The translations under genes were made by a program, and so were the position numbers. The notes under the pieces are model-generated. The model had not been told where the DNA came from, did no database searches, and saw only the letters and a list, made by a program, of their open reading frames with translations. A DNA stretch of 64,000 bases, taken from a virus. How positions within the stretch are numbered: position 1 is the first letter of the stretch; each line of letters begins with the position of its first letter. Below are positions 11-45,912 of the stretch, one piece after another. The stretch spans positions 1 through 64,000 of IMG/VR virus record IMGVR_UViG_3300009181_000055; one strand, written 5' to 3'.

Positions 11-81
11 AGTCAGGTGGTGAAACGGTAAACACAAAGGGCGCTGCTCTAAATGTACAGGTTCGAATCCTGTCCTGACTA
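11..81 (+). tRNA. tRNA-like element with degenerate anticodon arm
   Basis: A 7-bp acceptor stem (11-17 with 74-80), a 3-bp D stem with an AAACGGTAAA loop (20-35), and a perfect 5-bp T stem with loop TTCGAAT (57-73) are all present, followed by A81. The 20 nt between the D and T arms do not form a normal 5-bp stem with a 7-nt loop. The best pairing is AGGGC with GCTCT around only three bases (GCT). No anticodon can be assigned. It could be a decayed tRNA, an atypical one, or a tRNA mimic. No CCA is encoded. Confidence 0.6.
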
Positions 82-41909: not shown

Positions 41910-42758
41910 ATGAGTCAAGCAAAGACATTAAAAGAAATAATAAAAGAAGAGTACAAGAAATGTTTAACAGATCCTGTTCACTTCATGAAAAAGTTTTGCC
42001 AAATTCAACATCCTCAAAAAGGAAAAATACCTTTTCATTTATATACATTTCAAGAGGAGACCTTAAGAAACCTACGAGATCACGATTATAACGTCATACT
42101 AAAATCAAGGCAATTAGGTATATCAACTCTAAGTGCCGGCTATGCTCTTTGGCTTATGACGTTTTTTGGGGATAAAAATATTCTAGTTATCGCTACTAAA
42201 CAAGAAGTAGCTAAAAATTTAGTATTAAAGGTAAAAGTCATGTATGAAAATTTACCTTCATGGCTTAAATTGCCAGCAACAGAAGATAATAAATTATCAT
42301 TACGTCTTAATAACGGTTCTCAAATTAAAGCAACTTCATCGTCAGGAGACTCTGGACGTTCAGAAGCATTGTCTTTATTAATAATAGATGAGGCTGCGTT
42401 TATTTCCAATGTAGAAGAAATTTGGATATCATCGCAACAGACTTTAGCAACGGGAGGAGGAGCAATTATATTATCCACTCCTAATGGCACCGGTAACTTT
42501 TTTCATCAAACATGGGTAGGAGCTGAGGAAGGTAGAAATAGGTTTAATACTATTCGTCTTCGCTGGGACGTTCATCCTGACAGAGATCAAATATGGAGAG
42601 ATAAGCAAAATGAATTGTTAGGAGTTAAAGGAGCAGCTCAAGAATGTGATTGTTTATGGGGCGAATCAAAAGTAACGGTACGAGATAAGCTAACTAATGA
42701 AGAATTTAAAATAACATTAGAAGACTTATATAATTTAGATTATTTAGATAGCTATTAG
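41910..42758 (+). CDS. terminase large subunit (gp17) N-terminal ATPase part fused to intein N-fragment
   Basis: 282 residues. Residues 1-247 are the packaging ATPase: NVILKSRQLGISTLSAGYAL (Walker A, SRQLGIST like T4 gp17), LSLLIIDEAAFI (Walker B) and LSTPNGTGNFFHQ (coupling motif). The protein then reads AAQECD and passes into CLWGESKVTVRD (Cys248 onwards), an intein block A, stopping after 35 intein residues. The nuclease half is encoded by the next gene behind an intein C-fragment. The two products should be joined by trans-splicing. Confidence 0.92.
   Translation: MSQAKTLKEIIKEEYKKCLTDPVHFMKKFCQIQHPQKGKIPFHLYTFQEETLRNLRDHDYNVILKSRQLGISTLSAGYALWLMTFFGDKNILVIATKQEVAKNLVLKVKVMYENLPSWLKLPATEDNKLSLRLNNGSQIKATSSSGDSGRSEALSLLIIDEAAFISNVEEIWISSQQTLATGGGAIILSTPNGTGNFFHQTWVGAEEGRNRFNTIRLRWDVHPDRDQIWRDKQNELLGVKGAAQECDCLWGESKVTVRDKLTNEEFKITLEDLYNLDYLDSY
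42651..42755 (+). other. intein N-fragment (35 residues)
   Basis: Starts at Cys248 (TGT 42651-42653), the splice nucleophile. CLWGESKVTV fits block A (C-x4-T/S-x-V). It ends NLDYLDSY at the stop codon. No block B is present in this fragment. Confidence 0.88.
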
Positions 42759-42772
42759 AATTAAACAATAAA

Positions 42773-43105
42773 ATGCAAATAAAACGCAATACAAGATTTG
42801 AAATATTGACGCCTAATGGGTATCAAGATTTTGCCGGCGTACGTAAGTTACGAAAAGATAAAATTTATGTAATTACATTATCATCAAATATTATATTAAG
42901 ATGTTCTGAAACACATAAATTTATTGGTAATAGATTAGAATTAGAGGCTAACAAGCTTCAAATAGGTAGTATTATAGATTCAATTGATAATAATATCGTG
43001 ACCGTTATTGATATTAATATCGAAACTCAGCCTATAGAGTTATATGATATTATAGAAGTCGATCGCGGAAATATTTTTATAGTAGATGGAATTGTATCAC
43101 ATAAC
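42773..43105 (+). other. intein C-fragment (111 residues)
   Basis: Contains block B-like ILRCSETHKFI (T-x-x-H-type: THK preceded by SE), block F-like ELYDIIEVDRGNIFIVDGI and block G VSHN, directly followed by Cys (TGC 43106-43108) as the +1 extein residue. There is no endonuclease domain. Confidence 0.88.
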
Positions 43106-43951
43106 TGCGACTTTATCACTTCAGGTCATTCTGTAATTGAAGGTCAGGTATTAAAATGGTATGAAACAACTCATATTAAAGATCCTATTGAAACTAGAAA
43201 TAGTGGAGATTTATGGATATGGGAACCAGCAAATTACCAAAGAGATTATGTAGTTGTAGCTGACGTTGCTCGAGGTGACGGAGCTGACTACTCAGCATTT
43301 CATGTTATTGATGTAGAATCTGTAACGCAAGTAGCTGAATATAAAGGACAAATATCCACTAAAGAATATGGAAATATGTTAGTGAATATTGCAACAGAGT
43401 ACAATGACGCTTTGCTAGTGATTGAAAATGCTAATGTGGGTTGGGCTTCAATTCAAGTAGCAATTGACAGAGGCTATAAAAATTTATACTATTCTTCTAA
43501 AGATAGTGGATTGTCAGATGTATCTCAACAATTAGCTAGATATGTTGATTTAAGAGACACTTCTGCAATGACAGCTGGGTTTACAACTTCATCTCGCACT
43601 CGCCCTTTAGTAATTTCCAAATTGGATACTTACATGAGAGAGCGAGTTCCTGTAATTCACTCTAGACGATTAATAGAAGAGTTGTATGTTTTTGTGTGGA
43701 ATGGGTCAAAACCTGAAGCACAGCATGGTTATAACGACGATTTAGTAATGGCGTTTTCTATTGGATTATGGATAAGAGACACTGCCTTAAAGCTTCGACA
43801 GCAAGGAATGGATCTAAATAGAAAAACTTTAGATTATTTTGGTAATGGACGAGGCGTTTACAGTAATACTGCTGGAATGAGAAAAGAAACTGGATGGTCT
43901 ATGGACACCGGTAAAAGAGGCGAAGACGAAGATTTAACGTGGCTTCTTTAA
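42773..43951 (+). CDS. intein C-fragment fused to terminase large subunit (gp17) nuclease part
   Basis: 392 residues. Residues 1-111 are the intein C-fragment ending SHN. Residues 112-392 (CDFITSGHSVIEG...) are the RNase-H-type packaging nuclease: VVVADVARGDGADYSAFHVID (first catalytic Asp region), LLVIENANVGWASI (Glu) and HGYNDDLVMAFSIG (Asp pair). The expected joined sequence across the splice is AAQECD-CDFITSG, which fits the QE-CDF type junction of T4-like terminases. The gap from the first gene is 14 nt. Confidence 0.92.
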   Translation: MQIKRNTRFEILTPNGYQDFAGVRKLRKDKIYVITLSSNIILRCSETHKFIGNRLELEANKLQIGSIIDSIDNNIVTVIDINIETQPIELYDIIEVDRGNIFIVDGIVSHNCDFITSGHSVIEGQVLKWYETTHIKDPIETRNSGDLWIWEPANYQRDYVVVADVARGDGADYSAFHVIDVESVTQVAEYKGQISTKEYGNMLVNIATEYNDALLVIENANVGWASIQVAIDRGYKNLYYSSKDSGLSDVSQQLARYVDLRDTSAMTAGFTTSSRTRPLVISKLDTYMRERVPVIHSRRLIEELYVFVWNGSKPEAQHGYNDDLVMAFSIGLWIRDTALKLRQQGMDLNRKTLDYFGNGRGVYSNTAGMRKETGWSMDTGKRGEDEDLTWLL

Positions 43952-44004: not shown

Positions 44005-45912
44005 ATGGCAGCAGATAAAACATTATACGGTCGATTAAAGCGTCTCTTTAATACCAATGTTATCGTGCGTAAAGTGGGTAAGAATCAACTTAAAGTAGTT
44101 GATAATGATCATTTACAATCAATGGGTAACGCACATAACTCAAAATTTATTGATCGATTTACTAGGTTGCATGGGGTTCGTCCTAATTCATTAAATACAT
44201 ATAATCCAAATTACAATTACTTTTCATCTAAGACTGAATTGTATACAGATTATGAAGTTATGGATCAAGACGCAATTTTATCATCGGCATTAGATATCTA
44301 TGCAGACGAAACAGTTATGAAAGATGACTTTGGTGATGTATTGCGCATTACCAGTGACAATGAAAATATTAAAAAAATACTACATAATTTATTTTATGAT
44401 GTTTTAAACATTGAATTTAATTTATGGCCATGGGTTCGTAATATGTGTAAATATGGAGATTTATTTTTGCATTTAGACATTCAAGAAGAAATTGGAATTG
44501 TAAATGTTACTCCGATGTCTGCATATGAAATTATCCGTGAAGAAGGAATGACATTAGACAATCCATACCACGTGCAATTCAAGCAGTTAGGTGGAGGAAA
44601 TATTATATATGAAAACTTTGAGATTGCTCATTTTCGTTTAATTAATGACTCAAACTTCTTACCCTATGGTAAGTCTATGCTTGAAGGAGCTAGAAAAGTT
44701 TGGAAACAATTAACGTTAATGGAAGATGCGATGTTAATTCATCGTGTAATGAGAGCTCCTGAGAAACGTATATTTAAAGTAGACGTAGGAAATATTCCTC
44801 CTCAAGAAGTTGACGCTTACATGCAAAAAATTATTAATCAAATGAAAAAGGTACCTTATGTAGACCCTCAGACAGGAGATTATAATTTAAAGTTCAATAT
44901 GCAAAATATGCTTGAAGATTATTTCTTACCAGTAAGGGGTGGGTCTTCAGGAACCGAAATTGATACTTTAGCAGGTATGGAATTTACAGGTATTGACGAT
45001 ATTGAATATCTTCGTAATAAAATGATGGCAGCTTTAAAAGTTCCCAAAGCATTTTTAGGATATGAAGAAGGAATTTCAGGAAAGGCTACACTAGCTGCTG
45101 AAGATGTTCGATTTGCTAGAACCATTGAAAGAATTCAAAGAATTGTAATTTCTGAATTACATAAAATTGCTATTGTGCATTTATATGCTCAAGGATTTGC
45201 AAATGCAGAATTAGTTGATTTTGAATTGACAATGACTTCTCCGTCGACAATTTACGAACAAGAGAAATTAACTTTATACGCTACTAAAGTAACTTTAGCA
45301 GGCGATATGATTGAAAAGAAAATAATGTCTAAAGAATGGATATATAAAAATATATTTAATTTTACGTTGGATGAAGCGGCAGAAATACAATCAGGTTTAA
45401 TCACCGATGGTAAAGATACTTTCCGTCTTACTAAAATTGGAGAAGAAGGTAAAGATCCAGCAGACCCTAAAAATCAAGAGCCAGAGGAAAAAGAAGGTGG
45501 TGAAGAATCAGCAAATCCGTTTGGTGGAGGAGGTGAAGAAGAAGAAGGTGGCGAAGAAAAAGGAGCAAATCCATTTGCCGGCGGCAAGGAAGAGAAAAAA
45601 GAACCTACTAAAGAAGAAGGCGTAGATAAATCTCTTCAGAAAAAATACGATACAAAAGCTAGACAAAAACAAACACCTGCAGGAGGTTGGCCAGGAGCCG
45701 GTCGCCCAAAAGAAGGTATGAAATATAATACTCACGAGCATCCTAGAGGATATGATCCCATTGGAAAAGTAGCTTGGAAGAACTCTAGAAATGAATCAGC
45801 TATGGATACTATTAAAAAGTATGGATTAGCTAAGTATACTTCTAAGAAACCAAAGGTATTAAATGAGTCTGAAGGTAAATTGCTAGATGAAACAAATATT
45901 ATCCCAGAATAA
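44005..45912 (+). CDS. portal protein, gp20-like
   Basis: 635 residues, slightly longer than T4 gp20. The family pattern is clear: LYTDYEVMDQDAILSSALDIYADETV (~75-100), LWPWVRNMCKYGDLFLHLDI, LRNKMMAALKVPKAFLGYEEGISGKATLAAEDVRFARTIERIQ (~334-376). The last ~140 residues are a Gly/Glu/Lys low-complexity linker and a basic tail (PAGGWPGAGRPKEG) not typical of gp20. Forms the dodecameric DNA gate. Confidence 0.93.
   Translation: MAADKTLYGRLKRLFNTNVIVRKVGKNQLKVVDNDHLQSMGNAHNSKFIDRFTRLHGVRPNSLNTYNPNYNYFSSKTELYTDYEVMDQDAILSSALDIYADETVMKDDFGDVLRITSDNENIKKILHNLFYDVLNIEFNLWPWVRNMCKYGDLFLHLDIQEEIGIVNVTPMSAYEIIREEGMTLDNPYHVQFKQLGGGNIIYENFEIAHFRLINDSNFLPYGKSMLEGARKVWKQLTLMEDAMLIHRVMRAPEKRIFKVDVGNIPPQEVDAYMQKIINQMKKVPYVDPQTGDYNLKFNMQNMLEDYFLPVRGGSSGTEIDTLAGMEFTGIDDIEYLRNKMMAALKVPKAFLGYEEGISGKATLAAEDVRFARTIERIQRIVISELHKIAIVHLYAQGFANAELVDFELTMTSPSTIYEQEKLTLYATKVTLAGDMIEKKIMSKEWIYKNIFNFTLDEAAEIQSGLITDGKDTFRLTKIGEEGKDPADPKNQEPEEKEGGEESANPFGGGGEEEEGGEEKGANPFAGGKEEKKEPTKEEGVDKSLQKKYDTKARQKQTPAGGWPGAGRPKEGMKYNTHEHPRGYDPIGKVAWKNSRNESAMDTIKKYGLAKYTSKKPKVLNESEGKLLDETNIIPE

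What the first reader, a model, noticed from the sequence alone, without database searches (positions are those of the whole stretch)
41910..43951. Large terminase made from two genes through an atypical split intein
Seen: the ATPase-half gene ends with 35 residues starting at Cys248 (CLWGESKVTV, block A). After a stop and 14 nt, a second gene starts with 111 residues carrying block B-, F- and G-like sequence ending SHN, then Cys and the nuclease half (CDFITSG). Known: inteins begin with Cys/Ser, end HN and need a C/S/T +1 residue; classical split inteins divide late (about 100 + 35). Here the break is after block A, giving a very short N-fragment, with no homing endonuclease. Inference: the packaging motor needs trans-splicing, which could delay or gate terminase activity, and the fragments might be compact orthogonal splicing partners.
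Basis: partly seen in the sequence, partly recalled or inferred. Interest (0 to 1): 0.93.

Follow-up and report, generated by a model that had tools for sequence, protein, structure and literature searches.

The report
Phage terminase spliced from two genes
This phage very probably makes its DNA-packaging motor protein as two separate pieces that a split intein stitches together; the intein belongs to a family already known from phage terminases, and here it has lost the DNA-cutting gene that close relatives still carry between the two halves.

Summary
TerL is encoded by two adjacent genes in different frames: the ATPase half ends in a 35-residue IntN, the nuclease half begins with a 111-residue IntC ending SHN|C. 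Relatives whose TerL is 96/98% identical have an uninterrupted 528-residue TerL that joins exactly at the predicted junction. IntC matches the solved consensus atypical TerL intein CatC (E=1.7e-11), and a family IntN profile matches CatN (2.9e-4). AlphaFold models of the window's IntC, and of a naturally contiguous homologue at the same site, are intein (HINT) folds. So this is a new member of the known AceL/GOS/Cat-TerL type of naturally split intein, not a new kind. Two things were added. (1) The 14-nt gap is a deletion scar: the last codons and stop of a probable homing endonuclease gene (HEG) that relatives keep between the halves; 23 nt are identical in L001. (2) Against L001 the IntC is far less diverged than the C-extein (dS 0.045 against 1.08), so the element moved between phages. 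Among 43 distinct inteins, HEG-bearing, remnant, HEG-less and contiguous forms are interspersed. In passing, some relatives appear to build TerL from three genes with two split inteins. Splicing itself, and any gating role, is untested.

The parts
41910..42650 (+). N-extein: TerL ATPase half, 247 residues
   Evidence: T4 gp17 match E=2.3e-31; Pfam Terminase_6N; 96% identical to uninterrupted TerL in L003
42651..42755 (+). IntN, 35 residues starting at Cys1 (block A)
   Evidence: 97% identical IntN in L002; profile of 19 homologues matches PDB CatN E=2.9e-4
42753..42772 (+). Deletion scar: 3' tail of a lost endonuclease gene; supplies the last Tyr codon, the TAG stop and the 14-nt gap
   Evidence: These 20 nt plus the following ATG (23 nt) are identical in L001, where they are the end of the endonuclease ORF (..IRIKQ*), and in L002
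42773..43105 (+). IntC, 111 residues (blocks B, F, G; ends SHN)
   Evidence: PDB CatC E=1.7e-11; AlphaFold pLDDT 90.5, top Foldseek hit CatC
43106..43948 (+). C-extein: TerL nuclease half starting at Cys+1, 281 residues
   Evidence: T4 gp17 match; 98% identical to uninterrupted TerL in L003/L004

Best explanation
The phage makes its TerL as two proteins. IntN (35 aa) on the ATPase half and IntC (111 aa) on the nuclease half associate, fold into one HINT domain and splice in trans by the ordinary class 1 route (Cys1 thioester, transfer to Cys+1, Asn111 cyclisation), giving a 528-residue TerL with the layout of uninterrupted relatives. The element descends from a mobile cassette IntN - endonuclease - IntC of the AceL/GOS/Cat-TerL type. 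In this lineage the endonuclease gene was deleted between GATAGC(TA) and (TA)TTAGAATTAAAC, leaving a split intein that the terminase still depends on. Shown: gene layout, homology, predicted fold, exact empty site, the shared 23-nt tail, reduced divergence of the intein. Inferred: that splicing occurs, the chemical steps, the direction of the change (endonuclease loss), that the lost gene was an active homing endonuclease, and that spliced TerL is the functional form.
For: IntC to CatC 1.7e-11 and profile 1.3e-26, then gp41-1 and VidaL inteins; IntN profile to CatN 2.9e-4; TIGR01443 above cut-off. Fold: window IntC pLDDT 90.5, Foldseek top hit 6dsl CatC E=4.3e-8; contiguous homologue L143 pLDDT 93.7, top hit gp41-1 intein. 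Empty site exact in L003 and L004. Scar: 23-nt identity to L001 and L002; L001's upstream frame matches the endonuclease family (6.8e-67). 48 of 48 gap ORFs of at least 150 aa match one endonuclease family (near-copies counted). Window against L001: IntC dS 0.045 against C-extein 1.08; fourfold sites 2/32 against 44/87 (Fisher p 4e-6). Block B His48 and block F Asp92 invariant in 36 of 36 rows. No member of the endonuclease family in the window's record or the 181.6-kb record with the identical locus, while 3 of 3 control records rang.
Against: No splicing was measured. Pfam's intein models stay below cut-off for the window protein (Intein_splicing E=0.081, PT-HINT 0.05). The 35-aa IntN alone finds nothing significant in the PDB, and in the profile search two Tako8 sequences ranked above CatN. 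L001's IntN lies off its contig, so the cassette with >95% intein identity is seen only in its 3' part. No co-conversion tract beyond the junction is visible. The intein tree is unrooted and cannot by itself show loss.
Confidence: 0.93

Rival explanations
1. TerL works as two separate, unspliced subunits; the intein pieces are decaying leftovers.
For: Two-piece enzymes are possible: a phage reductase gene cut by an endonuclease gene into two working peptides is mentioned in PMC10448857 (passage). The endonuclease is already lost here.
Against: IntC keeps block B His and block F Asp in 36 of 36 homologues, the frames are open, and window-L021 IntC shows dN 0.41 against dS 1.11, i.e. constraint. 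Unspliced halves would carry 35 and 111 foreign residues at the ATPase-nuclease junction.
Confidence: 0.04
2. Sequencing or assembly error, or a frameshift, splits what is really one contiguous intein gene.
For: Contiguous forms exist at the same site (L143) and at the neighbouring site (L037, L146).
Against: The same layout at 100% identity in a second, 181.6-kb record (L040); the gap matches endonuclease 3' sequence; 11 of 35 distinct site-B inteins, the window included, are split with no or only a remnant endonuclease gene.
Confidence: 0.02
3. The split is a timer that gates packaging: TerL becomes active only after both halves accumulate and splice.
For: No data here bear on it directly.
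Against: The junction is uninterrupted in 68 of 79 related loci by motif search, including TerLs 96/98% identical, so the device is dispensable; a mobile cassette explains its presence without such a function.
Confidence: 0.05

Closest known systems
AceL-TerL and GOS-TerL naturally split inteins (Thiel 2014; Bachmann and Mootz 2015; seen only through passages of PMC11766414 and PMC13014065)
   Same: TerL inteins by name, split after the first helix (S2), IntN 25 and 37 aa, longer IntC. GOS-TerL's 37-aa IntN is close to the 35 here.
   Different: Cys1 here (GOS uses Ser1). Sequences of AceL and GOS were not held, so identity was not measured.
Cat consensus atypical TerL intein, PDB 6dsl
   Same: IntC homologous at 1.7e-11, Cys+1 followed by an acidic residue in both; same fold (top Foldseek hit of the window IntC, 29% identity).
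   Different: Cat is an engineered consensus with no genome context.
'Fractured genes': split inteins with endonuclease genes (Dassa 2009; title seen in reference lists only, content recalled)
   Same: Relatives L048, L103, L112 and others have IntN - endonuclease ORF - IntC.
   Different: The window has lost the endonuclease and keeps only a scar.
VidaL and PolB16 atypically split inteins (PMC13014065 and PMC10189870, passages)
   Same: Very short IntN; VidaL is a distant sequence and fold relative.
   Different: Split earlier (S1, after strand beta2) than AceL/GOS TerL (S2), according to PMC13014065.

Membership tests
Class 1 intein (HINT splicing domain) | HINT fold | tested here: met
   Window IntC pLDDT 90.5 and contiguous L143 homologue pLDDT 93.7; best Foldseek matches are inteins or intein-like domains (top 50 rows seen). 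The window's own pair was not folded together.
Class 1 intein (HINT splicing domain) | Nucleophile at position 1, block B His, block F Asp, His-Asn at end, C/S/T at +1 | tested here: met
   Cys1, His48, Asp92, His110-Asn111, Cys+1 present in the window. Invariance of Cys1 and HN-C among homologues is partly built in by the search patterns; that of His48 and Asp92 is not.
Class 1 intein (HINT splicing domain) | Removal restores an uninterrupted host protein | tested here: met
   L003 and L004, 528 aa, abut at D|C with no missing residue
Class 1 intein (HINT splicing domain) | Protein splicing activity | not testable with these tools
   Needs expression and mass spectrometry
AceL/GOS/Cat-TerL atypically split inteins | Sequence homology of both halves | tested here: met
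   CatC 1.7e-11; CatN 2.9e-4 by family profile, not by the single IntN
AceL/GOS/Cat-TerL atypically split inteins | Located in TerL, split after the first helix | tested here: met
   TerL exteins; in the contiguous L143 model the helix is residues 23-29, and the window IntN aligned to it ends 6-8 residues later
AceL/GOS/Cat-TerL atypically split inteins | Same insertion point in TerL | tested here: inconclusive
   CatC is followed by Cys-Glu where the window has Cys-Asp; the native AceL/GOS junctions were not held
Endonuclease-bearing fractured gene | Endonuclease ORF between the halves | tested here: not met
   Only a 14-nt gap; no family member in G000 or G001, 3 of 3 controls positive

The most novel reading that the evidence does not exclude
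TerL of these T4-like phages is a recurrent home for IntN - endonuclease - IntC cassettes at several sites (after AAQE, after AAQECD, and in the Walker B motif). The endonuclease is lost again and again, leaving permanently trans-spliced terminases like the window's, and some of these re-fuse into contiguous mini-inteins. Some phages have two split inteins at once and so build one motor protein from three polypeptides by two separate trans-splicing reactions.
Probability: 0.7. Interest if true: 0.6.

Novelty: new member of a known kind. Interest (0 to 1): 0.42.

Why it matters
The window's intein is a natural Cys1/Cys+1 TerL split intein with a short IntN, of the type used for protein labelling. 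More usefully, its lineage shows three states of nearly the same intein (endonuclease present in L001, internally deleted in L002, deleted here), which makes the fate of split inteins after endonuclease loss testable on natural sequences. In the four annotated phage records looked at, such halves are called hypothetical, coil-containing or separate terminase genes, so split terminases may be under-recognised.

Tried and rejected
Programmed frameshift joining the two genes: rejected by eye. Intron: at gathering thresholds Rfam finds only a tRNA at 11-81 in the window. Endonuclease moved elsewhere in the genome: no match in G000 or G001 with working controls (alone lacked a control); both records may be incomplete. 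Naming the endonuclease family: weak Pfam hits only (of 20 members: NUMOD3 8, DUF5417 8, Ros/MucR 4 with best 1.3e-4, DUF559 4 with best 1.8e-3, MTES_1575 nuclease 1 at 4.5e-4), nothing useful in the PDB, no PHROG for the two members tried. 'Homing endonuclease', and any likeness to Vsr, is therefore inference and recall. Co-conversion tract: not visible with L001; the L002 comparison was ungapped and broke at an indel. Host: left open; the nearest named phages infect Flavobacterium and Microcystis, and the genome-collection search was not accepted. Polarity: the tree counts changes but cannot tell loss from gain, and the label 'endonuclease present' is no more clustered on it than shuffled labels (15 changes against a shuffled mean of 15.3); loss is argued from scars and remnants.

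Full report
Observation. The two ORFs lie as described, 41910-42758 and 42773-43951, 14 nt apart and in different frames. The first is the T4 gp17-like ATPase half (PDB gp17 E=2.3e-31; Pfam Terminase_6N), the second carries the nuclease half after 111 residues (gp17 E=1.7e-8). By eye neither frame runs through into the other, so two proteins are expected.

Identity of the extra residues. IntC matches the PDB chain CatC, a consensus engineered intein with atypical split site (4e-11 for the whole protein; 1.7e-11 for the fragment; 1.3e-26 with a profile of 36 homologues, followed by gp41-1 and VidaL inteins). NCBIfam's intein C-terminal model is above its cut-off, while Pfam's intein models are below theirs. 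The 35-aa IntN alone finds nothing significant, but a profile of 19 IntN homologues finds CatN at 2.9e-4 (two Tako8 sequences rank higher by many weak repeats). The window's IntC is modelled at pLDDT 90.5 and its best Foldseek match is CatC. A homologue at the same site that is naturally contiguous (L143) is modelled at 93.7; the 50 best matches shown are inteins or intein-like domains, gp41-1 first. Cys1, block B His48, block F Asp92, His110-Asn111 and Cys+1 are present; His48 and Asp92 are invariant in 36 of 36 rows. Conservation of Cys1 and of HN-C in that set is partly built in by the search patterns. Block names are recalled.

Empty-site test. A search of IMG/VR with the C-gene kept the best 80 of 183 relatives, 79 distinct loci. 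By a motif search 68 of the 79 have this junction uninterrupted; of the other 11, eight carry intein matches here and three do not (L066 is cut off, L071 and L072 abut). Three of the 68 (L018, L019, L064) are interrupted elsewhere, in the Walker B motif. L003 and L004 are 96% and 98% identical over the two exteins and join them directly at D|C, giving 528 residues, exactly 247+281. The Flavobacterium phage immuto and Microcystis phage Mel-JY01 TerLs are also uninterrupted at QECDC[DN]F.

Where the split comes from. In relatives such as L048, L103 and L112 an ORF sits between the halves at this site (231-281 aa where full), and 48 of 48 gap ORFs of 150 aa or more at the two neighbouring sites match one family by blastp (E<=1e-5; near-copies counted). 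It is a probable homing endonuclease: weak NUMOD3, Ros/MucR, DUF559 and MTES_1575 similarities, no solved relative. L001's upstream frame, cut by the contig end, belongs to it (6.8e-67) and ends ..TTTTATTAGAATTAAACAATAA-A-ATG, the ATG being IntC's start. The window has TATTAGAATTAAACAATAAAATG, 23 nt identical, directly after GATAGC of IntN. Hence the gap, the stop codon and the last Tyr of IntN are read as endonuclease sequence. L002, with 97% IntN and 89% IntC identity, keeps an N-terminal endonuclease remnant (9.5e-11) and the same tail. Three states therefore occur inside one intein lineage (100/99 support). No member of the endonuclease family is found in the window's 80.9-kb record or in the 181.6-kb record that holds the identical locus; 3 of 3 control records were positive.

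Mobility. Window against L001: IntC dS 0.045 and 2 of 32 fourfold sites differ, C-extein dS 1.08 and 44 of 87 differ, Fisher p=4e-6. Window against L002: IntN 0.05 and IntC 0.13 against 1.33 and 0.99 for the exteins, p=2e-5. The intein thus moved between lineages, while L003 and L004, with extein dS 0.28-0.37, lack it. The IntC difference to L001 is not significantly below the extein difference to L003 (p=0.08). No co-conversion tract was visible.

Wider pattern. A second search with an IntC alignment kept the best 80 of 346 relatives, so the counts below describe a capped sample. After removing duplicates and unparsable rows, 67 rows were labelled, 43 distinct by sequence and class, the window included. 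Site B (after AAQECD, 35 distinct): endonuclease present 22, remnant 5, none 6 including the window, fused to IntN 1, contiguous 1. Site A (after AAQE, 8 distinct): present 4, remnant 1, none 1, contiguous 2. The label 'endonuclease present' needs 15 changes on the intein tree, at least 8 forced by well-supported branches, about as many as shuffled labels (mean 15.3); contiguous forms fall in 3 separate places, one of them sister (100/94) to a 14-nt-gap split form, L130. Intein and endonuclease distances agree (Mantel r=0.75, 24 representatives, 0 of 2000 permutations), more closely than intein and C-extein (r=0.45, 40 representatives, 0 of 2000). This fits a cassette inherited and moved as a unit, with repeated loss of the endonuclease. 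The unrooted tree cannot prove direction; the scar and the remnants in gaps are most simply read as loss.

Novelty. Papers read in passages describe AceL-TerL, GOS-TerL and Cat with short IntN (PMC11766414; PMC13014065), so the class is known. Of the primary papers, Bachmann 2015, Stevens 2018 and Dassa 2009 were looked up and are not held; Thiel 2014 was not looked up. In the listings of searches for split inteins with terminase, with endonucleases and loss, or with two split inteins in a phage I saw no report of the deletion series or of a three-piece terminase; most listed papers were not opened and subscription papers were not searched. I file the window as a new member of a known kind.

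Noticed in passing
L168:2393-6736 and L050:1669-5185: TerL encoded in three genes by two split inteins (Walker B site and AAQE site). L168 has an endonuclease-like ORF in each gap, of two kinds by eye; L050 keeps only the first. The middle gene is IntC1 - TerL middle - IntN2. L167 matches the middle gene equally, its N-gene was not examined.
   Followed up: partly
L018, L064, L072, L171, L173, L174: A separate split-intein site in TerL's Walker B motif (DE|..|CAF), with an endonuclease-like ORF in the gap (L064, L072 TnsA-like above cut-off; L173, L174 by eye) or without (L018, L171).
   Followed up: partly
L159 (Vibrio phage K469), L163 (Vibrio phage 1.244.A), L164 (Vibrio phage VP-1), L162 (Providencia phage PSTRCR_127): Phage records with TerL likewise cut into IntN- and IntC-bearing genes, by eye with a GIY-YIG-like endonuclease fused after IntN (Vibrio) or as its own ORF (Providencia); none matches the endonuclease family of the window's relatives (blastp). 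VP-1 also has a contiguous intein-like insert in the Walker A motif.
   Followed up: partly
L005:3058-6117 and L037:5185-8211: The downstream portal protein gene carries a contiguous intein with an HNH-like domain (above cut-off in L005, just below in L037). The window's portal gene (44005-45912) shows none.
   Followed up: partly
L091:3163-4006: IntN runs in frame into endonuclease-like sequence, giving one ATPase-IntN-endonuclease protein that overlaps the IntC gene.
   Followed up: no
window 11-81: A tRNA gene, the only Rfam match in the window at gathering thresholds.
   Followed up: no
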